A DNA stretch of 64,000 nucleotides. Source: a virus. A program made the translations under genes and the position numbers. Every line of letters starts with the position of its first letter. The first letter of the stretch is position 1. The stretch is taken from IMG/VR virus record IMGVR_UViG_3300045283_000349, positions 1 through 64,000 of that record. One strand, given 5' to 3'. Positions 1 to 37,277 of this stretch are shown in pieces. The notes under the pieces are model-generated. The model saw only the letters and a list, made by a program, of their open reading frames with translations, did no database searches and was not told the DNA's origin.

Positions 1-13
1 AAATGCCTTGTTT

Positions 14-625
14 TTATAACGGGGGACGGTCGCGCTTCGCGGCGGCTGCCTCGCCCAGAAGCTCCTGGTAGGCGGTCAGCAGCCGCTCAAATTGGTCCTT
101 CAGCTTGCGGTAGTACTCGGCCGCCCCGGATGCGGCCGCCAGCTCGCGGTCGCGCCAGGCAATCTCCGCCGTGGCCTCGGCCAGGCGCTTGTCAAGCTCG
201 GCCTGCACCAGCAGCGCGCACTCGTAGCAATCGACGCGGGTGCAGTTCCTGTCGAGGTGGGCGAGCGACTGAAGGCTCATCACCACGAAGCCCTCGGGAA
301 TGCCCCACGCAGGGCCACGCGCGAGGTATGAGACGGACCTGCGCAGCTCGCGGCCGGTGTACTTGCCCGGTGGTTCCTTGGCCCACTCGACCGTGTGCGG
401 TCCGAGATCGGGAGCGAAGCCCGGGGGGTATGGCGTTCCGCCCTCCCACTCCCGGCGCGGCACCCATTCCTTGAGCACCAGCACGTTGCCGGGGTCGAAG
501 CCCCGATCGTCGCGCCGGAACTCGAAGGTCTTGCGCCCGCAGCGGAGCGCCTCGAATGGGTCGGGCCATGTCTTCAGCTCGTGGACCACGTCCGGGCGCC
601 AGTATTGCAGCTCGTTAAGGGTCAT
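14..625 (-). CDS. DUF3850-domain protein
   Basis: A 203-residue protein. Residues 15-60 (HELKTWPDPFEAL, then a Lys-Thr-Phe-Glu-Phe-Arg-Arg-Asp stretch) match the DUF3850 family of small ASCH/PUA-like domains common in phages; members of that fold are thought to bind RNA or nucleotides, but the exact role is unknown. The C-terminal third (about 130-195) holds several cysteines and then a charged, probably coiled-coil helix that is unusual for the family. The ATG overlaps the stop of the gene upstream by 4 bases (ATGA), so the two are probably translationally coupled. It is the last gene of the long minus-strand cassette in this window. Confidence 0.8.
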   Translation of the reverse strand: MTLNELQYWRPDVVHELKTWPDPFEALRCGRKTFEFRRDDRGFDPGNVLVLKEWVPRREWEGGTPYPPGFAPDLGPHTVEWAKEPPGKYTGRELRRSVSYLARGPAWGIPEGFVVMSLQSLAHLDRNCTRVDCYECALLVQAELDKRLAEATAEIAWRDRELAAASGAAEYYRKLKDQFERLLTAYQELLGEAAAAKRDRPPL

Positions 626-5523: not shown

Positions 5524-5735
5524 GATTTTCCCTCCCGCATCGACAGGCTGAGCCCGAGCTTGGCCCGTGGGTTGAGCGCGTTCACGGCCTGGCGCAGGGC
5601 CGTCTCGGCCGCCTCGAGCTCGACCATGCCCTGGTGCCGGAGCCGCTTGAACCGCTTGCGGTACTCGGGCTCGACGCCGAATTTGGCGGCGCTGCGCAGG
5701 CCGCGCGCGAAGTGCTTGAGGTCGCCGGGTTTCAT
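5520..5735 (-). CDS. hypothetical helical protein
   Basis: A 71-residue basic, helical protein starting MKPGDLKHFARGL. The start is chosen by its ATGA overlap with queD. No family is recognised. Confidence 0.6.
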   Translation of the reverse strand: MKPGDLKHFARGLRSAAKFGVEPEYRKRFKRLRHQGMVELEAAETALRQAVNALNPRAKLGLSLSMREGKS

Positions 5736-6145
5736 GGGCGCCACGACGCCCCCGATGTGGCGTCCTCCTGCAGGTCGATGCGGTCAAGCCAGAGGCGCCG
5801 GTCCGGGGCGGCCGACGCGATTAGGCTTTCGAGCCGGACCGCCAACCATGCCGCGAACCGCTCAACGGTGGGGTTCTCGGCCACCCATGCGGCGGTCGGC
5901 GTTGAACACCGCTCGGCCAACGTGTTGAGGCTGTGATGGTCGACGGCCCGGAGCACCGGTCGGATCACGCGGTCGAGGTCGTCATACTCGATCAGCATGC
6001 CGTCCGCGTTTAGCTCACCGCCCACGTGCAGGGTGAGCTCGTAGCGATGCCCATGCAGCCGTCGGCATTTGTGGCCCTCAGGCACCCCCGCCGTGAGGAG
6101 GTGCGCGACCTCGAGGTCATAGCGGCGTCGAATCAGAATTGCCAT
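5732..6145 (-). CDS. queD: 6-carboxytetrahydropterin synthase QueD
   Basis: A 137-residue enzyme of the QueD/PTPS family, which converts 7,8-dihydroneopterin triphosphate to 6-carboxy-tetrahydropterin on the path to preQ0. Zinc ligands are visible at His15, His31 and His33 (CRRLHGHRY), the catalytic Cys at 27, an Asp-His-His near residue 69 and a Glu in NPTVE further on. Length is normal. It overlaps the DpdA-like gene by 13 bases. A preQ0-path enzyme beside a base-exchange enzyme points to modified DNA rather than tRNA. QueC, QueE and FolE are not visible here and would have to come from the host or the rest of the genome. Confidence 0.88.
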   Translation of the reverse strand: MAILIRRRYDLEVAHLLTAGVPEGHKCRRLHGHRYELTLHVGGELNADGMLIEYDDLDRVIRPVLRAVDHHSLNTLAERCSTPTAAWVAENPTVERFAAWLAVRLESLIASAAPDRRLWLDRIDLQEDATSGASWRP

Positions 6146-6741
6146 GCCGACTGTCTCCTGGCGCTGTCGAGCATCGGGATCGTGGTCGCGAACCGGGTGG
6201 CGCTGGTGCCATCGAAGCTGTCAGCGCCGGCCATCACGCACATCTGGATCCGGCGGGCGCTGTTGACCCGGCCCACGTGGCAGTAGGCGCCGTGCGCGCG
6301 AGCCAACGCCGCCCAGCTGGCCATCGTGCGCAGTTTCCACTCTGTCGAACCGCCAACAAAAACGCCGACATCACCGCCCAGCAGCGACCGCACGTCCGCA
6401 GGCTGCATCCCGTCCTGGACCGGGACCAGGCGTCGGCGACCAATCCGGTCCAGGCGTGGCAGCCAGGTCTCGGACAATCGTAGCGAGCGCAGGCCGCCGG
6501 CAACGACGTCCGGCACCACGACGAAGGCAGCGCCCGCGCCGAGCTTGTCGATCACCTCTTCGAACGCGGCGGGTTCCCACGGTCGGCCCTGCTGGTGCGC
6601 GGTCCAGGCGCCGTTGTCGATGCCGTAAACATCAAACCCTTCTGTGCGGTGAACGCCCGAGGCGCTGACGAGCAGTCCCCATCCGCGCGCGCGCAAGGCA
6701 TCGAGGTTGCGTCGCGTGCCTGTGCGGCTCGCGTACGCCAT
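6133..6741 (-). CDS. DpdA-like DNA transglycosylase (phage type)
   Basis: A 202-residue protein (ATG 6741; a GTG one codon upstream is possible). It shows features of the short TGT-like proteins described in phages as DpdA variants: YGIDNGAW near 39-46, a PDVV strand near 80, LVPVQDG, GVFVGGSTEWK near 130 and CHVGRVNS near 155, then a Gly-Ala-Asp-Ser-Phe-Asp-Gly turn. These enzymes are thought to swap guanine in DNA for a 7-deazaguanine made with QueD and related proteins, which protects phage DNA from restriction. The direct link with queD supports the call. The base inserted cannot be told from sequence. Confidence 0.72.
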   Translation of the reverse strand: MAYASRTGTRRNLDALRARGWGLLVSASGVHRTEGFDVYGIDNGAWTAHQQGRPWEPAAFEEVIDKLGAGAAFVVVPDVVAGGLRSLRLSETWLPRLDRIGRRRLVPVQDGMQPADVRSLLGGDVGVFVGGSTEWKLRTMASWAALARAHGAYCHVGRVNSARRIQMCVMAGADSFDGTSATRFATTIPMLDSARRQSAWQF

Positions 6742-6842
6742 CACGGCACGCCCCAGTCGAAGACCTTGACCGCCAGGCCCAGGATCGCGACGGCCGCCAA
6801 CATGAACGTGATGCCCAGCAGGGCGAGGCCTTCGCGGGTCAT
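6741..6842 (-). CDS. tiny membrane protein (33 aa)
   Basis: A 33-residue frame, nearly all one transmembrane helix (LLGITFMLAAVAILGLAVKV). It overlaps the gene upstream as ATGA and the DpdA-like gene downstream as TGATG. Role unknown. Confidence 0.45.
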   Translation of the reverse strand: MTREGLALLGITFMLAAVAILGLAVKVFDWGVP

Positions 6843-8511: not shown

Positions 8512-9234
8512 ATGGCCCTCATCCGCCGCGACGATCTCCTCCGCAAGGTGAAGATCCGCACATTCGACTACGCCACGGCGCTCCGAGAGCACGCGGCCAA
8601 GCTCATCGGGGCGCCCATCACGTGCGGCAAGGGCTGCGCTTACTGCTGCTACTCGAAGATCTGCATCGACGCCGGCACCGGCATGGTGATCGCGCTCGAG
8701 CTGGTGGCGCAGGGGCGCTGGACGCCCGCGCTGGTGGCAAAGCTGACCGCGGCCGATGCGGCCATGACCCGCACGAACCACCACGACTGGTTCAACTTGC
8801 GCCGGCCCTGCGTGTTCTTGGCCGAGGACGAGTGGGGCAGGGGCACCTGCACGATCCACGCGGTTCGGCCCTACAGCTGCGTGACCACGTTCTCGGCAAG
8901 GCCCGCCATCGAATGCAGCGTGGGCGACAACGTCGCCAGCTTCCAGGTCGCTGACGAGCAGATCGTCGAGCACCTCATGCCCTACCACGAGGCGCTGCTC
9001 AACGGCGCGGGCGAGACCCGGACATGGTTGATGACCATCCCCGGCGCCGTGCTGTACGGCTACTCGCTGGCGGCCAAGGAGCCACCACCATCGTCGGTCC
9101 TGCGACTGGACCAGGACCAGGGGCCGCGCGGCGATTCGATGACGCTAGTCGAATGGCTGGACAAGCACGGGGCCGCCCATGGGGCGCGGATGGCCGAGGC
9201 CGCGGCGCGGGCACCGCTGCTGGGCGCATCGTGA
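8512..9234 (+). CDS. YkgJ-family cysteine-cluster protein
   Basis: A 240-residue protein with the CxxCC signature (CGKGCAYCCYS near 38-48), a further Cys near residue 100 (RRPCVFL) and Cys residues around RPYSC, the arrangement of the YkgJ (CxxCxxCC) family thought to bind zinc or an iron-sulfur cluster. The biochemical role is not known. It overlaps dnaB by 4 bases, so both are likely made together as early replication genes. Confidence 0.75.
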   Translation: MALIRRDDLLRKVKIRTFDYATALREHAAKLIGAPITCGKGCAYCCYSKICIDAGTGMVIALELVAQGRWTPALVAKLTAADAAMTRTNHHDWFNLRRPCVFLAEDEWGRGTCTIHAVRPYSCVTTFSARPAIECSVGDNVASFQVADEQIVEHLMPYHEALLNGAGETRTWLMTIPGAVLYGYSLAAKEPPPSSVLRLDQDQGPRGDSMTLVEWLDKHGAAHGARMAEAAARAPLLGAS

Positions 9235-21711: not shown

Positions 21712-22401
21712 CTATCGCGGCGGGATAAACGATCCCGTGCCGCCCCAATTGAACGATCCCCAGGTGCGCGTTGTCGGCCAGCCCCACGTCGCGCCCGAGG
21801 CGATGATTGCGGTCCCGATGAAGTCGGCCTTGGCCGGGCGCCAGCGCCACACGATCCGGTTCAGCTTGGCGGCCGCCGCGCTGAATAGACCGGTCAACGC
21901 GTCCCACGTGAGCGATGGTTGCGCGGCCACGAAGAGCAGGCCGAATTCCGCGTATGCCTCGGGCGGCTTTCCGCTCCAGGTCCACACCGGCCCATCCGTG
22001 ATCGTGGTCGCGCCGAGGCTCGTCCGCGTCGAGCGGCGGCCGCTGCGCTGGATCACGTACAGATTGGCGCGGTCGTAGCCCGCGATGTCGAGCTGCCCCA
22101 ACAGCGCCCCGTGCGAGCCCATGCGCGGGAACACGTCCCAGGCCAGGCGCAGCCGCTCGCCATACTGCGCATTGGTCTCGGTCGGGCCGCGCTCGAGCTG
22201 GCGTTCGGCACCGATCTTGGCCAGCGCCTCGGTCGCCGGGGTCATCGTCGAGACGACGCCGGGCATCGACAGCTTGCGCGCCTGGATCATCTCGTCCGTG
22301 CACTCGTCGAGCTCGGCACCGAGCGCCTTGATCAGTCGCCCGCTCCAGGTGCCCTGCAGCGCGGGGGGCGCGAGCTTTGGCAGCCAGTCCTCGTAGAGCA
22401 T
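21712..22401 (-). CDS. tail protein I / gp48-like baseplate protein
   Basis: A 229-residue protein starting MLYEDWLPKLAPPALQG; an ATG sharing a base with the stop of baseplate J fixes the start. The N-terminal helical part (residues 10-90) and order after baseplate J match P2 gpI / Mu gp48 proteins that link the baseplate wedge to fibres. The C-terminal 80 residues are rich in Trp, Gly and Thr. Confidence 0.7.
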   Translation of the reverse strand: MLYEDWLPKLAPPALQGTWSGRLIKALGAELDECTDEMIQARKLSMPGVVSTMTPATEALAKIGAERQLERGPTETNAQYGERLRLAWDVFPRMGSHGALLGQLDIAGYDRANLYVIQRSGRRSTRTSLGATTITDGPVWTWSGKPPEAYAEFGLLFVAAQPSLTWDALTGLFSAAAAKLNRIVWRWRPAKADFIGTAIIASGATWGWPTTRTWGSFNWGGTGSFIPPR

Positions 22402-23861
22402 CAGAGCACGATCCAGTTGAGCAAGGTGGCCAGCGAGCTGCCGGCCAAGGCCTGCATCACCTCGGTGCTGAGCACCGTGAAATCCGGATAGATCGCACTG
22501 CCGGTGGGGCCGATGAAGATGTCGAAATAATCGACCGCACCGGCGTCCATCAGGATCTGGATCAGCTTGGCCGCGCGGACAGTTCCGCCGATCGGCAGGC
22601 CCGCGATGTAGACCTGCCAGGCCAACTGCGCCTCGGTCTGGATCCGGGTCAGGTCGGCCGCGTTGACCTCCACGTTGCCAGCGCTCTCGATGTCGACCAC
22701 CGTGGCGGCGGCGACGAACGGGTGGTCTGTCACGCCGGCCCGCTGATCGATGTAGGCCTGCACTGTGCTGACAATGCCGGTCAGATCCGAGAGGCCAGCG
22801 ATCAGAATATCCGTGCGGCCCGGGTGCGCGGCCGTGTTGTTGGGATTGACGGTCACCTTGGTGACCTGGGTCGAGGCCAGGCGCGCCCACTGCTCGTAGA
22901 TGTCCGTGGTCGGGACCTCGGCCAGCGAGGGCCAGCGGGCCATCATCCGCGCGCCCAGCGCCTCCTTGGTCTCCTCATCCAGGCCTTGGAGCGCGATGGG
23001 TGATCCGGGCGTGCTGAAGTCGTAGGTGTCGAGGTAGACGAACGAGGGGTTAGCGGTGCCCGCCACGAACGCCACCACCGTCCCCCCGGGCAGCACCACG
23101 CCCCCGCTGGCGCAGCTGCCGGCGGGAATGTAGGGCGCGCCGTCCTGGCTGTACTCGAACGTGGCGACGTCGGGCTGGCCCGATGCCGTGATCCGCAGCG
23201 TGAACCGCGCCGGGCCCGTAGGCGTCCCGCCCAGCGACAGGGTGCCGGTCCCACTGCCGGCGTGGCCAACCGCGGAGAAGGTCGGCGCGCCGTTGATCGC
23301 GCTCACGCCCGGCAGCTGCTTGGTCAGCAGGGTGGTGATCTCACCGGCCACATCGGCGTAGGCCGCCCCCGGGCTCTCGGCTTTGAACTGCAGCGCCTTG
23401 TAGTCGGTGCCGTCGACCGCGGTGGGGCCGACACCGAGCGCGGTGCCGATCGGGATCGTCCCGGCCTGAGCCAGGATGTAGCGGTTGCCCGACAGCGCCT
23501 GCACCACGAGATCGCCGGCGGCGACGGTGTAGGGTCCCACGCCCGGAGCCGCGTACAGCTTGACGGTCTGGACCGTGAAGCTGGCGCCGATCTTGTCGAT
23601 CGCGTAGTTCTGCTGGGCCAGCAGCGTCAGCCAATCATCGTCGGCCTCGTCGACGAAGCCGCCGCCGGCGATGCGCGGCACGAGGCCCGCCACGTTGTCG
23701 GCGATGCCGGCAGCGGCCATCTCAACGAAGGTCCGGCCGTTCGCCCCGGGGGCGAAATCGGTGATGGGGAAGCCGTCGCTGTTGAGCCGGCCGAACAGCC
23801 GCTCGCGGATCTGGTCCTGGGTCAGCCCCGCGAGTAGCTGGTCGAATGTCAGGAGCGCCAC
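22401..23861 (-). CDS. baseplate J-like protein (Mu gp47 type)
   Basis: A 486-residue protein from GTG 23861. The start (FDQLLAGLTQDQIRERLFGRL) and the beta-rich middle followed by VEVNAADLTRIQTEAQL and a final alpha-beta domain match the baseplate J family (P2 gpJ, T4 gp6), which forms the wedge ring of the contractile baseplate. No Shine-Dalgarno is present; an M1 motif sits 41 nt upstream. Confidence 0.85.
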   Translation of the reverse strand: MALLTFDQLLAGLTQDQIRERLFGRLNSDGFPITDFAPGANGRTFVEMAAAGIADNVAGLVPRIAGGGFVDEADDDWLTLLAQQNYAIDKIGASFTVQTVKLYAAPGVGPYTVAAGDLVVQALSGNRYILAQAGTIPIGTALGVGPTAVDGTDYKALQFKAESPGAAYADVAGEITTLLTKQLPGVSAINGAPTFSAVGHAGSGTGTLSLGGTPTGPARFTLRITASGQPDVATFEYSQDGAPYIPAGSCASGGVVLPGGTVVAFVAGTANPSFVYLDTYDFSTPGSPIALQGLDEETKEALGARMMARWPSLAEVPTTDIYEQWARLASTQVTKVTVNPNNTAAHPGRTDILIAGLSDLTGIVSTVQAYIDQRAGVTDHPFVAAATVVDIESAGNVEVNAADLTRIQTEAQLAWQVYIAGLPIGGTVRAAKLIQILMDAGAVDYFDIFIGPTGSAIYPDFTVLSTEVMQALAGSSLATLLNWIVL

Positions 23862-29417: not shown

Positions 29418-31280
29418 TCACGTCGTCCCGGTCTCGAGCGCGATCCTGGTGAAGGCGCTTTGCAGCTGCCCCGGCAGGAGATCCTTGATCATGTCGGCGA
29501 TCTCCTGGGCTGCCGCCTCGCCGCCGGCGCCGCTGTAGTTGATCGTGATCGGCGCGCTGACGCTGACCGCCCCGACCGTCCCGCCGGCACCGCGCTTGGC
29601 GTTGCGGATGTCCTGTGACGGTGCGGGGATCGCTCGGGCCGTGGCATCAGCAACACGCCCGCCCATGCCCTCGATGCCTGCCGCAAACCCCTCGCCACTC
29701 ATCCGGCCATAGCGCTCGAACACCTTCGAGGGCGAGTGCATCTCGAGGACGGCTGGGGGGATCGCCTTGAGGTCCTCCATCATGTTGAAGAGCGCCGCCG
29801 GCGCCTTTCCGCCGGCGATGCCGTCCGCGACGCCCTGGTCGATGCCGCTACCGAACCGGTTCACGTCGGGCAGCAGTGAATCCAGCGCGTTCATCATCAG
29901 CTGCACCGACGGCGGTAAAAAGCTGTTGGTCGAGACGCCCGCGGCCAGGCCGCCTGGCGGCCTGCTCTTCACCACGTGCGGCGCCATGGCGATGCTCATG
30001 GCGTTCTTGGGATTGAAGACATCCTCGACGAATCCGGTCTGGCCCGCGCGCGAGGCGGCGCCCGCCGTTGGTCCTCCCACCTCCTTCTTGCCGCCGGGCA
30101 GCTTGCCCAGGAACTCCAGGAACGCGACCCCCGCCTTCGTCGTCCCTTCGATGAGCCCGGGCAGCTTGGTGAAAAGATTGATCAGCGAATCGGACAGACC
30201 CTTGATGTCGATCGCCGCCAGCGACTTCGCCACGCTCTGGAGCATCTGATCGAGCGAGTCGACGATCCGCTTGCCGTTGGGGCTATCGGGATCGAGCATG
30301 TCGGCGATGCGGCCAAAGGCGTTGCCCAGCTCGGTCACGCCCTTCGAATCAGCTAGGCCTTTGAAAAGCTCCTCTTTGGAGCCCAAGAGTCGGTCGAGCT
30401 GGGCCATCGGCGTCTTGCCCATTGCATCGGCCGTCGCTCCAGCCTGAGCACCTTTCGTGACCTTTTTCAGTGTGCGCTGGATGGCTCCGAAGATCAGGTC
30501 TGGCTTCACCCCGCCCTCGGGACCCATCTCCACGCGCTTCTGCGCCTCCAGTGAGCTGACGCCCATGTGCTTGGCGATGTCGCCGAAAAAATCCTTGTCG
30601 CTGACGCCCACGCCTCGGAGCAGCCTGTTGTCAAAACCGCCCTTTCGCTGCGCCCTCGCCAGTTCGGCACCGACCTCCAAAGCCTTGGAGGTCTTGGCCG
30701 CCCTGTCAGGCAGACCAGGAGTGAGCGCAGTGATATCCGCGGCGATCGCGAAAGCTTTGTCGAGCTTGTCGACCGCCATCCCGGCCCGCAGCAGACCGGC
30801 CGCCATGCCTGTAAACGCCTCGTCCTCAATGCCTGTGGCGGAGCGCATGGCATCCGCGAGCGCCTGAATCCGTTTGGCGTCGGCGGGTCCGGCTATCGTC
30901 GACAGGATCCGGTTCGTCTCGCTGGCGATGCTCGACAGCTTGATCATGTCGACGCCTAGGTCGATGGCGCCGCGGCCCATAGCCTTGAGGCCTTCGAACG
31001 TTGCGAACCCCAGGAACGAGGAGCCAGCGTCGCGGAAGAAGGTCCCGACCTGCCGGCCCAAGGCGCCCAAAACCTTCCCCATCCCGGTGCCCATGGCATC
31101 GACCGCCTTGTTGGCGCCGGCCGCCGCAATGGGCAGGGCGTTGAACGCCCGCAGGGTCATCTTCATGCCCGGATCGATCTTGACCAGCTGCTTGGTGATG
31201 CTGTTGAGCACCTTGTCCAGCGCCGGCAACGAGCCGAGCTTGGCGTCGAGAGCGAGGATGAATTTTAGCGGGGCGGCCAT
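29418..31280 (-). CDS. tail tape measure protein
   Basis: A 620-residue protein with long helical and hydrophobic stretches and the typical C-terminal SPSKVFERYGRMSGEGFAAGI signature near 520. Tape measures set tail length; at about 0.15 nm per residue this length suggests a tail near 90 nm. A perfect AAAGGAGG ribosome-binding site precedes its ATG. It follows the frameshifted chaperone gene, as is usual. Confidence 0.9.
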   Translation of the reverse strand: MAAPLKFILALDAKLGSLPALDKVLNSITKQLVKIDPGMKMTLRAFNALPIAAAGANKAVDAMGTGMGKVLGALGRQVGTFFRDAGSSFLGFATFEGLKAMGRGAIDLGVDMIKLSSIASETNRILSTIAGPADAKRIQALADAMRSATGIEDEAFTGMAAGLLRAGMAVDKLDKAFAIAADITALTPGLPDRAAKTSKALEVGAELARAQRKGGFDNRLLRGVGVSDKDFFGDIAKHMGVSSLEAQKRVEMGPEGGVKPDLIFGAIQRTLKKVTKGAQAGATADAMGKTPMAQLDRLLGSKEELFKGLADSKGVTELGNAFGRIADMLDPDSPNGKRIVDSLDQMLQSVAKSLAAIDIKGLSDSLINLFTKLPGLIEGTTKAGVAFLEFLGKLPGGKKEVGGPTAGAASRAGQTGFVEDVFNPKNAMSIAMAPHVVKSRPPGGLAAGVSTNSFLPPSVQLMMNALDSLLPDVNRFGSGIDQGVADGIAGGKAPAALFNMMEDLKAIPPAVLEMHSPSKVFERYGRMSGEGFAAGIEGMGGRVADATARAIPAPSQDIRNAKRGAGGTVGAVSVSAPITINYSGAGGEAAAQEIADMIKDLLPGQLQSAFTRIALETGTT

Positions 31281-32349: not shown

Positions 32350-34008
32350 TCAACCGATCGCGGGGTTGCTGAAGCCGATGCTGGTGGTGATGTGTTTGAG
32401 GTAGGCCTTCGGGATCACGCGCACCGTGACCGGCTGGGAGGCGCCCTCCAGCAGGTTCGCAGTCCGCGACATCACCACCTGGGCCGACGAGGCCATGCCG
32501 GGCGCGATGAGGCCGGCCCTCAGCTGGCTGTTGACGTCGGCCTCGAAGCGCTGGGCCTCTTTCTCATCGATGAACCCGTTGGCGGCGATCGTCACCTCCT
32601 GGTTCAGGTACGGCAGCTCGGCCTGGCGGGTGATCCTGCAAGCCGTGTCCATGACCCGGCGGTTCATGCCGTAGGTGAAGTCGGACCCGCCGGGCGCCAT
32701 CATCCGGAAATTGGTGATGAAGTAGCCCTCTTTGCCCCGCTGCCTGGTGAGCGTGGTGAAGCGCTGCTCGTCGAGGCCCGGCGTGGCGCCCTCGTTGCGG
32801 TAGATCGAGGTGACCCCGGGCAAGGCGCCGCGGCCCACCCAGGCGGGATCCTCCTCCTGCGAGATGAGGGCGATCCGGGCCGCCACCACCCAGGCGCAGT
32901 TGCGGCGGTTGATCTTGGACGTGAGCGGCGAGACCAAGGCGGCGTCGCCCGCGCAGACCGTCACCCGCTTGGAGACGTAGGAGGCGAAGGTGCTGATCAG
33001 CACGCTGTCGGCCTCGGTCGTCGGGCACTCGGTGAGTGCATAGGTGTAACGGAATGCCGTCTCCATCCCGGTCAACTTGGTGTCCACCGCGACCGCCAAG
33101 GTGTAGGCGTTGGCCGCGCTGCTGGGCGCTCCCACGACGTGGATGTGATCCCACTCCGTGGCCTGGCCGCTGAGGACGTCCATGGCGCTGTTGACGTCGC
33201 TGACCGTGAAGGCAGCGGCCACCGAGGTGAAGCTGTAGGTGTCGCCAGCGGTGAAGGTCCCGGCGAAGGTCAGTACCAAGCCGGTGCCCGGGATCGCATA
33301 GACCCCGCCGCCCGGGATGGCGATGATCGGCGAGACGCTGTTGCCGCCGTCGGTGCTGTAGATGAAGGCGCCGACACCGAGGCCGCCCGCGGTGTTGATC
33401 TGGACGATCGCATCGAAGGCGTCGTCGGGCGACGAGGCCTGCGTGACGGTCGGGCCACCGCCCGCGTTGGTCACGACGCCGTTGGTCCCGACCGTGTAGG
33501 TGGCGTTGAGGACGTAGGTCCCCGCCGGGAACGTCAGGACGGTCAGTGTCCCGGGCACCAGGATCGTGGCGGCCGTCGGGACGGGCGCGCTGTAGGCACC
33601 GCCGTCCACGCTGAACTGCACCTGCGACGTGGCCAGGATGCCCGCGGTCGAGATCTTGGCCACGATCACCCGGTCGGGCGCGAGGCTCACCGCCACGGTG
33701 CCTGTGCCGGGGCCCACGTGGGTGGTGCCGCCGCCGGTGCCGTTGACGCCCGCCGTGCCCGGCGTGGTGGGGTTCGCGGGGCAGGCATAGACGGGCCCCC
33801 CGGCGACGTTAAGCACCTGGCCGATGGCCTCGACCAGCGGCCCAGAGCCGAGGTCGGCCGAGAGCTGGTTGATGTCGCTGTACCCCTTGACCGTGTTGGG
33901 CACGCCCTTGCTGCAGATCCCGATCTTGGCCGAGGCGCCGGCGACGTTTGGCGGGAGCGTGCCGAGCGCCCCGTCCTCGATCGTCATTGTGATCCCTGGT
34001 AGTGCCAT
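32350..34008 (-). CDS. contractile tail sheath protein
   Basis: A 552-residue protein. The opening (MALPGITMTIEDG) and the C-terminal segment with INRRNCAWVVAARIALISQ, YRNEGATPGLDE and VRVIPKAYLKHI match tail sheath proteins of the Mu/DUF2586 group. Residues about 85-275 are an inserted Gly/Thr-rich beta domain that probably decorates the outside. The sheath contracts to drive the tube into the cell. An M2 array lies between it and the gene upstream. Confidence 0.85.
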   Translation of the reverse strand: MALPGITMTIEDGALGTLPPNVAGASAKIGICSKGVPNTVKGYSDINQLSADLGSGPLVEAIGQVLNVAGGPVYACPANPTTPGTAGVNGTGGGTTHVGPGTGTVAVSLAPDRVIVAKISTAGILATSQVQFSVDGGAYSAPVPTAATILVPGTLTVLTFPAGTYVLNATYTVGTNGVVTNAGGGPTVTQASSPDDAFDAIVQINTAGGLGVGAFIYSTDGGNSVSPIIAIPGGGVYAIPGTGLVLTFAGTFTAGDTYSFTSVAAAFTVSDVNSAMDVLSGQATEWDHIHVVGAPSSAANAYTLAVAVDTKLTGMETAFRYTYALTECPTTEADSVLISTFASYVSKRVTVCAGDAALVSPLTSKINRRNCAWVVAARIALISQEEDPAWVGRGALPGVTSIYRNEGATPGLDEQRFTTLTRQRGKEGYFITNFRMMAPGGSDFTYGMNRRVMDTACRITRQAELPYLNQEVTIAANGFIDEKEAQRFEADVNSQLRAGLIAPGMASSAQVVMSRTANLLEGASQPVTVRVIPKAYLKHITTSIGFSNPAIG

Positions 34009-36353: not shown

Positions 36354-37277
36354 CTAGACCGTGACCGCTCGGATCGCGGTGAAGGGCAGGCCGTAGCCGG
36401 CCGCACCGCGGGCGTCCGAGCCGAACTCGTACTCCTTGCGGTAGAACACGTTGTCGAGAGACGCGTCCGTCCGGGTGATGAAGTCCGGCTCCTTGCGGAC
36501 CTGCAGGATGATCGGCTTGAGCCGGGTCGTGCTGAGGAGGTAGTAAACCGTCGGCTCGTTTTCGAGCCGCGGAATCACCAGCACCTTCATCGGCCGGCCG
36601 CCCGCAATGCCCGCCAGCAGCGGGTTCGGGATGGCGGCGTTGTTGGACGCGACGACCGGCGCCATCGCCGTGGCAGCGTCCAGCGCGAGCGAGGGGGGCA
36701 CCACGAGCAGGTCGGGGTAGATCTCCAACGACCGTCCCGACTCGCCCTTGAACGCCAGCATCTTGTTGGACAAGAAGGCCAGGTTCGTGGGGGTGATCGG
36801 CTTGGCCGTGAACAGGTTGGCGTACGTGCCAGCGCTGTCGTCGTCCAGGTTGATCGGGTGGTCGGTGTCGAAGAAGAACTGGCCGTCGAAGGCCGTGGTG
36901 GTCGAGCCCGCCTGCAAGCAGTCGAACACGAGGTTGTCCCACAGCGCCTTGGCCGCGTCGCCCAGCAGCTCGGCGTGCCGGCTGTAGATGCCGAACTGAT
37001 CGTCTTCGATCTTGTTCCGTGAAACGGTGAAGCCGTCCTCCCAGTCCTTGTTGACGATCGAGTAGGCGCGGCTTGCCAGGTTGTGGAAGACCCGGGGGCC
37101 GATCCATTCCCGGAAGCCCGGGATCTCGGCCAGCCACGCGTACGTGTTCGACTCGGTCGTCGACGGCAACCGTTCGGCCAACTGCGGCCAGAAGATCGTC
37201 CGGTTGGCGAGGCCGAGGTCGAAGTCATTGTGGAACTGCGTGAAGAGGAAATTGAGCGATGCCGGTGTGATCTGCAT
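36354..37277 (-). CDS. major capsid protein (Mu gpT-like)
   Basis: A 307-residue HK97-fold coat protein of the Mu gpT family (length in Mu is about 305). The start (ITPASLNFLFTQFHNDF) and the segments FREWIGPRVFHNLASRAYSI and NKIEDDQFGIYSRH are family-typical. It builds the head from an assembly core made by the scaffold gene upstream. No cleaved N-terminal arm is evident. Confidence 0.9.
   Translation of the reverse strand: MQITPASLNFLFTQFHNDFDLGLANRTIFWPQLAERLPSTTESNTYAWLAEIPGFREWIGPRVFHNLASRAYSIVNKDWEDGFTVSRNKIEDDQFGIYSRHAELLGDAAKALWDNLVFDCLQAGSTTTAFDGQFFFDTDHPINLDDDSAGTYANLFTAKPITPTNLAFLSNKMLAFKGESGRSLEIYPDLLVVPPSLALDAATAMAPVVASNNAAIPNPLLAGIAGGRPMKVLVIPRLENEPTVYYLLSTTRLKPIILQVRKEPDFITRTDASLDNVFYRKEYEFGSDARGAAGYGLPFTAIRAVTV

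What the first reader, a model, noticed from the sequence alone, without database searches (positions are those of the whole stretch)
5732..6741. QueD-DpdA pair: likely 7-deazaguanine DNA in this phage
A complete QueD overlaps a short DpdA-like gene by 13 bases. Known phages with such pairs replace part of their G with 7-deazaguanine derivatives and become resistant to many restriction enzymes. The rest of the path (QueE, QueC, FolE) is absent here, which raises the question of what base is inserted and whether host enzymes supply it.
Basis: partly seen in the sequence, partly recalled or inferred. Interest (0 to 1): 0.75.

Follow-up and report, generated by a model that had tools for sequence, protein, structure and literature searches.

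The report
Compact DNA-base swapper with QueD helper
A phage known only from metagenome DNA carries a very small enzyme that probably swaps guanines in DNA for a modified base, next to a single gene (QueD) for making that base, so the bacterium presumably supplies the rest; the enzyme belongs to a large, mostly unlabelled family also found in other phages, prophages and Pseudomonas plasmids.

Summary
On the minus strand, queD (5732-6145, 137 aa, PTPS family, all catalytic residues present) overlaps by 13 bp a 203-aa DpdA-like gene (6133-6744). By sequence the short protein matches no Pfam, NCBIfam or PDB entry, only the unnamed family PHROG 15826. However, its predicted structure (pLDDT 93) is a TIM barrel whose best Foldseek PDB matches are tRNA-guanine transglycosylases, and profile comparison aligns it with known DpdAs, including both catalytic aspartates and the histidine typical of 9g-type DpdA. 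The 66,967-bp record has a 127-bp terminal repeat, so it is probably complete; QueC, QueE and FolE were not found anywhere in it. In 28 of 79 related viral loci a preQ0 gene sits beside the short dpdA, usually just one (QueC 22, QueD 3, FolE 1), and the partner differs between close relatives. Best reading: a compact DpdA that inserts preQ0 or a derivative into DNA, with QueD topping up the host's pathway. This is a new variant of a known kind. Activity, inserted base and host are untested.

The parts
6133..6744 (-). Compact DpdA-like transglycosylase, 203 aa (GTG 6744; alternative ATG 6741). Putative catalytic residues D43, D79, H156 and D178 (nucleophile position).
   Evidence: PHROG 15826 E 1e-44; AlphaFold2 pLDDT 93, pTM 0.91; Foldseek PDB top 20 all tRNA-guanine transglycosylase, best E 3.8e-5; hhalign to DpdA/TGT profile E 1.8e-5, to MED16 DpdA E 2.2e-6, unrelated TIM barrels E 0.06-0.21
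5732..6145 (-). QueD-type 6-carboxytetrahydropterin synthase, 137 aa, C-x3-HGH motif (H15, C27, H31, H33, D69, E127)
   Evidence: PF01242 E 8e-22; PHROG 2389 QueD-like E 7e-14; TIGR03367 QueD E 7e-19 but 68.1 bits, below the 89.25 cut-off; E. coli QueD structures 4ntm/3qn0 E about 2e-13; catalytic residues invariant in alignment A6
6133..6145 (-). 13-bp overlap of dpdA end and queD start, implying co-transcription; the same 13-bp overlap occurs in L011
5520..5744 (-). Downstream 74-aa ORF (GTG) overlapping queD by 13 bp, unknown function, probably same transcript
   Evidence: no confident family match

Best explanation
The short gene encodes a minimal DpdA: a TIM-barrel guanine transglycosylase without the zinc site of tRNA TGT. 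After replication it cuts the glycosidic bond of selected guanines in the phage DNA through a covalent Asp178 intermediate and puts in a free 7-deazaguanine base, most likely preQ0. The phage does not make preQ0 alone. The host supplies GTP cyclohydrolase (FolE), QueE and QueC from its queuosine pathway, and the phage's QueD raises or fills the second step (dihydroneopterin triphosphate to carboxytetrahydropterin). The two genes overlap and are probably made together. The result would be partial modification of phage DNA that blunts some host restriction. Shown here: genes, overlap, absence of the rest of the pathway, fold prediction, catalytic-residue match, family-wide link to preQ0 genes. 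Inferred: DNA as substrate, preQ0 as the base, supply by the host, protection.
For: Fold: confident AlphaFold2 model, TGT as top Foldseek PDB hits; VIA Z 15.3 over 200 residues to TGT. Active site: D43NG, P78-D79, H156 and D178-G align with 9g DpdA D72, D114, H196, D215 and E. coli TGT D89, D143, D264, and are invariant in 47 relatives. Profile match specific to DpdA/TGT: E 1.8e-5 and 3e-7, 2.2e-6 to MED16 DpdA, whose phage has measured dADG (PMC8306585), against 0.06-0.21 for two unrelated TIM barrels. Genomic link: preQ0 genes beside the short dpdA in 28 of 79 viral loci, including QueC-DpdA-QueD-QueE in L006 and QueC-QueD-DpdA in G005. The same QueD+DpdA-only set occurs in three other long records, G001, G002, G004, which also lack QueC, QueE and FolE matches. 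Both genes under purifying selection.
Against: No Pfam, NCBIfam or PDB sequence hit for the short protein, and PF01702 finds nothing in the record even at E 10. TIM barrels resemble one another: pyruvate kinase scores Z 15.2, tied with TGT. 51 of 79 viral loci show no adjacent preQ0 gene, so QueD is dispensable for the family. In Sonali and L077 the short protein coexists with a longer TGT-like protein and the full pathway, so it may have a different role there. No member of the short family has a reported activity that I could find. The host is unknown, so host supply of QueE and QueC is untested.
Confidence: 0.66

Rival explanations
1. Same enzyme, different base: the compact DpdA inserts preQ1, 7-carboxy-7-deazaguanine or an amide (ADG) rather than preQ0, because only QueD is phage-borne and the host decides which intermediate is plentiful.
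For: Known DpdA-only phages 7-11 and MED16 carry dADG, not mainly dPreQ0 (PMC6884629, PMC8306585). Partner genes in this family feed the preQ0 line at different points (FolE, QueD, QueC), so they do not fix the end product.
Against: QueC, the step that makes preQ0, is by far the commonest partner (22 of 28 as sole partner), which points to preQ0 as the common currency; QueF was not searched for.
Confidence: 0.17
2. The compact barrel acts on RNA (a mini-TGT for host or phage tRNA or mRNA), with QueD raising queuosine precursors during infection.
For: TGT homologues act on tRNA by default, and the best-matching solved structures are tRNA TGTs.
Against: No zinc site and no room for the extra TGT segments in 203 aa; the closest profiles among those compared are phage DpdAs; the family travels on phages, prophages and plasmids, as expected for protection of mobile DNA; hosts with a queuosine pathway already have TGT.
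Confidence: 0.09
3. No modification: the pair is a remnant of a once larger pathway, or QueD serves folate or pterin metabolism, and the barrel is inactive or does something else.
For: Pathway incomplete; Orion has a DpdA yet unmodified DNA (PMC6884629); 51 of 79 relatives lack a partner.
Against: Catalytic residues of both proteins fully kept, purifying selection on both, overlapping arrangement conserved in L011, a C-x3-HGH QueD motif rather than that of folate-type PTPS (motif assignment from general knowledge), and QueD-only partners in several distinct phages.
Confidence: 0.08

Closest known systems
Phage DpdA of the 9g/CAjan type (Hutinet et al. 2019, PMC6884629)
   Same: TGT-type barrel, catalytic aspartates, the conserved histidine at 9g position 196, gene neighbourhood with preQ0 enzymes
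   Different: 9g DpdA is 317 aa with the full pathway beside it; here 203 aa, undetected by Pfam TGT, and one pathway gene only
Pantoea phage MED16 DpdA (261 aa; dADG measured, PMC8306585)
   Same: DNGAxxAW-like motif and best single-sequence profile match to the short family (E 2.2e-6); relies on the host for preQ0
   Different: Longer, no pathway gene at all, about 13-25% identity in alignment A5; trace modification
Short 'DpdA-like tRNA-guanine transglycosylase' of actinophages (Sonali gp81, Aoka gp40, Majeke gp54)
   Same: About 200 aa, same invariant motifs; 31% (Aoka, Sonali) to 38% (Majeke, partial) identity
   Different: Different hosts; Sonali has the full pathway and a second longer TGT-like gene; function unproven
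Erythrobacter phages R6L gp10 and ZS04 (annotated hypothetical / DarB-like antirestriction)
   Same: 50% identical compact DpdA in cultured phages
   Different: No QueD match in those records; little else of those genomes resembles the window phage

Membership tests
Phage DpdA (DNA guanine transglycosylase, 9g type) | TGT-type TIM barrel | tested here: met
   AlphaFold2 pLDDT 93; Foldseek PDB top 20 are TGTs, best E 3.8e-5; other TIM barrels tie in VIA Z, so the sequence-profile result carries the distinction
Phage DpdA (DNA guanine transglycosylase, 9g type) | Catalytic aspartates and conserved histidine (9g D72, D215, H196) | tested here: met
   D43, D178, H156 aligned by hhalign and invariant in 47 sequences
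Phage DpdA (DNA guanine transglycosylase, 9g type) | Genetic link to preQ0 genes | tested here: met
   28 of 79 viral loci have an adjacent FolE/QueD/QueE/QueC gene
Phage DpdA (DNA guanine transglycosylase, 9g type) | 7-deazaguanine in the DNA, lost when the gene is lost | not testable with these tools
   needs nucleoside mass spectrometry
DpdA2 (Vibrio phage nt-1 type) | Lack of the 9g His196 (PMC6884629) | tested here: not met
   Histidine present and invariant (H156); nt-1 protein is 464 aa and only a weak fold match
DpdA3 / DpdA4 subfamilies (Cui et al. 2023) | Sequence features of those subfamilies | not tested
   The defining paper is not held in the library
Bacterial tRNA TGT | Match to the Pfam TGT model and zinc-binding Cys/His set | tested here: not met
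   No PF01702 match in the record even at E 10; no conserved cysteines in the family alignment
QueD (6-carboxytetrahydropterin synthase) | PTPS family domain | tested here: met
   PF01242 77.9 bits against cut-off 22.4
QueD (6-carboxytetrahydropterin synthase) | C-x3-HGH motif, zinc histidines, catalytic Asp and Glu | tested here: met
   H15, C27, H31, H33, D69, E127 invariant with other phage QueDs
QueD (6-carboxytetrahydropterin synthase) | NCBIfam TIGR03367 equivalog cut-off | tested here: inconclusive
   Best NCBIfam model, but 68.1 bits against 89.25; the QueD inside the QueC-DpdA-QueD-QueE cluster of L006 also falls below it (76.0), so the cut-off does not discriminate for phage QueDs

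The most novel reading that the evidence does not exclude
A very large compact DpdA family (203-aa scale, hidden under 'hypothetical protein'), carried by phages, prophages and Pseudomonas megaplasmids, modifies mobile DNA with host-made 7-deazaguanine; carriers pick up whichever single pathway gene (QueD, QueC or FolE) limits supply in their host, so the partner gene tells where the host's pathway is short.
Probability: 0.3. Interest if true: 0.75.

Novelty: new variant of a known kind. Interest (0 to 1): 0.5.

Why it matters
If active, a 203-residue enzyme would be a very small base-exchange enzyme for DNA and a possible tool for labelling DNA. It would extend 7-deazaguanine DNA modification to hundreds of phage loci and over a hundred catalogued plasmids where standard annotation does not flag it, and to phages that borrow most of the pathway from the host. 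The 'one helper gene' pattern makes an open question testable: how phages with incomplete pathways obtain the base, and how much of it they insert.

Tried and rejected
Looked for hidden QueC, QueE, FolE and a second TGT in the whole record: none. The Cys-rich ORF at 8512-9234 is not a radical SAM enzyme but a CxxCxxCC domain protein. Sequence search for a solved relative of the short protein, single or as a profile, gave nothing meaningful. Tried to find the host: no tRNA genes; tail genes resemble Meiothermus, Thermus and Myxococcus phages and the head protein Mu-like phages of mixed hosts, so the host stays unknown. Tetranucleotide palindromes show no general avoidance (only CTAG clearly low), compatible with protected DNA but not specific. 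The idea that the phage belongs to the R6L group because of the shared DpdA was rejected: almost nothing else matches. The key later paper on DpdA subfamilies (Cui et al. 2023) could not be read.

Full report
Observation. QueD matches PF01242 at E 8e-22 and E. coli QueD structures at about 2e-13. The short gene has no Pfam, NCBIfam, PADLOC or PDB match but matches PHROG 15826, unknown function, at 1e-44. Both genes have close relatives in the same overlapping arrangement in another phage (L011: 67-68% identity, same 13-bp overlap) with dN/dS near 0.26 for each, so they are real, selected genes.

Completeness. The window is part of a 66,967-bp virus record. The record begins and ends with the same 127 bases, which I read as the assembler overlap of a circular or circularly permuted genome; I therefore take the genome as probably complete (inference). 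QueC, radical SAM (QueE), FolE and Pfam TGT models find nothing in the whole record, while they do ring in control genomes. Apart from the short gene, QueD stands alone in this phage.

What the short protein is. An AlphaFold2 model built on 47 relatives is confident (pLDDT 93, pTM 0.91). Foldseek against the PDB returns tRNA-guanine transglycosylases for the first 20 places (best E 3.8e-5). A second aligner gives Z 15.3 over 200 residues to TGT, but a pyruvate kinase barrel scores 15.2, so the barrel fold alone does not decide. Profile comparison does better: E 1.8e-5 and 3e-7 against an alignment of phage DpdAs plus E. coli TGT and 2.2e-6 against the DpdA of Pantoea phage MED16, versus 0.21 and 0.06 for two unrelated E. 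coli barrels. Comparisons with the single sequences of E. coli TGT and 9g DpdA were weak (0.014 and 0.027). In the profile alignment D43 falls on 9g D72 and E. coli D89, D79 on D114 and D143, H156 on the 9g His196, and D178 on D215 and D264, the nucleophile. D43, D79, H156 and D178 are invariant in the 47-sequence alignment. His196 is the residue that the DpdA2 family lacks (PMC6884629), so this is not DpdA2. Zinc ligands of tRNA TGT are absent.

QueD. H15, C27, H31, H33, D69 and E127 are invariant with other phage QueDs, in the C-x3-HGH arrangement of QueD (motif assignment from general knowledge of the PTPS family). The protein falls below the NCBIfam equivalog cut-off (68.1 of 89.25 bits), but so does the QueD of L006, which lies between DpdA and QueE in a QueC-DpdA-QueD-QueE cluster (76.0).

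Family and partners. Among 79 viral loci, 28 have a preQ0 gene within 1.5 kb of the short dpdA: QueC alone 22, QueD alone 3, FolE alone 1, QueC+QueD 1, QueC+QueD+QueE 1. Apart from one locus (L077), no such gene was found farther away in the fetched stretches. The sample is the best-scoring loci and only flanks were read, so the fractions are not estimates for the whole family. Searches of whole records agree: G001, G002 and G004 have QueD only; G006, G007 and G022 QueC only among the four pathway genes; G024 has QueC and no QueD; G005 has QueC+QueD; G003 QueC+QueD+QueE; G020 all four. On the tree the window groups with L011 (QueD), L014 (QueC) and L016 (none), and presence of a partner changes at least 9 times. 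G002 pairs a QueD 66% identical to the window's with a much more divergent short DpdA. The partner gene is thus exchanged readily, as expected for a helper. Among phages with a related head protein, G005 carries QueC-QueD-DpdA while G027 and G028 carry none of them.

Mechanism and what it implies. The simplest account is a post-replication base exchange by a minimal DpdA, using preQ0 made mainly by host enzymes, with QueD supplied by the phage. Published data set limits: full-pathway phages Rosebush and CAjan have about 28-32% of G as dPreQ0 and resist several enzymes; DpdA-only phage 7-11 has 0.02% of G as dADG; Orion, in a host without the pathway, has none (PMC6884629). MED16 has 0.13% dADG, and most enzymes tested with G in their sites cut it; the resistance seen was put down to Dam-type methylation (PMC8306585). 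Broad restriction resistance is therefore a possibility here, not a conclusion.

Novelty. DpdA, QueD and borrowing host preQ0 are all known. New, to my reading of the papers held, are the compact family itself as a DpdA-type group outside actinophage annotations, its one-helper pattern, and its presence on plasmids. I could not read Cui et al. 2023, which defined DpdA3 and DpdA4 (known to me from memory and its citation in PMC13329287), so overlap with those subfamilies is not excluded. I call it a new variant of a known kind.

Noticed in passing
PLSDB plasmids, e.g. NZ_CP009975.1 (P. putida S12, 271209-271790), NC_005244.2 (pND6-1, 30636-31220): Compact DpdA homologues, mostly at 55-63% identity, lie on 164 plasmid records, 146 of them Pseudomonas, many 370-585 kb megaplasmids, annotated 'hypothetical protein'. 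No preQ0 gene is annotated within 5 kb in the two I read. No paper held links megaplasmids to 7-deazaguanine DNA.
   Followed up: partly
L004 (Arthrobacter phage Sonali) 5935-6552 and 8922-9812; L077 8001-8606 and 11515-12306: Two phages carry both the short DpdA-like protein and a longer TGT/DpdA with the full preQ0 pathway, suggesting two different exchange enzymes in one phage.
   Followed up: no
window 1-127 and record positions 66841-66967: 127-bp exact direct repeat at the record ends, outside the window at the far end.
   Followed up: yes
record 65499-66695 (L158:3500-4693), outside the window: DNA methyltransferase, PHROG 498 E 3.7e-92; the phage may also methylate its DNA.
   Followed up: no
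window 32350-34008, 22401-23861, 36354-37277: Contractile-tailed phage: tail sheath 43% identical to Meiothermus phage MMP7, baseplate wedge, Mu-like major head protein.
   Followed up: partly
window 8512-9234: CxxCxxCC metal-binding domain protein near the pair, E 1.3e-7.
   Followed up: no
KY006853.1 and PV416405.1 (L002 6001-6642, L003 5001-5642): The compact DpdA of Erythrobacter phages R6L and ZS04 is annotated hypothetical or DarB-like antirestriction; these are cultured and could be tested.
   Followed up: no
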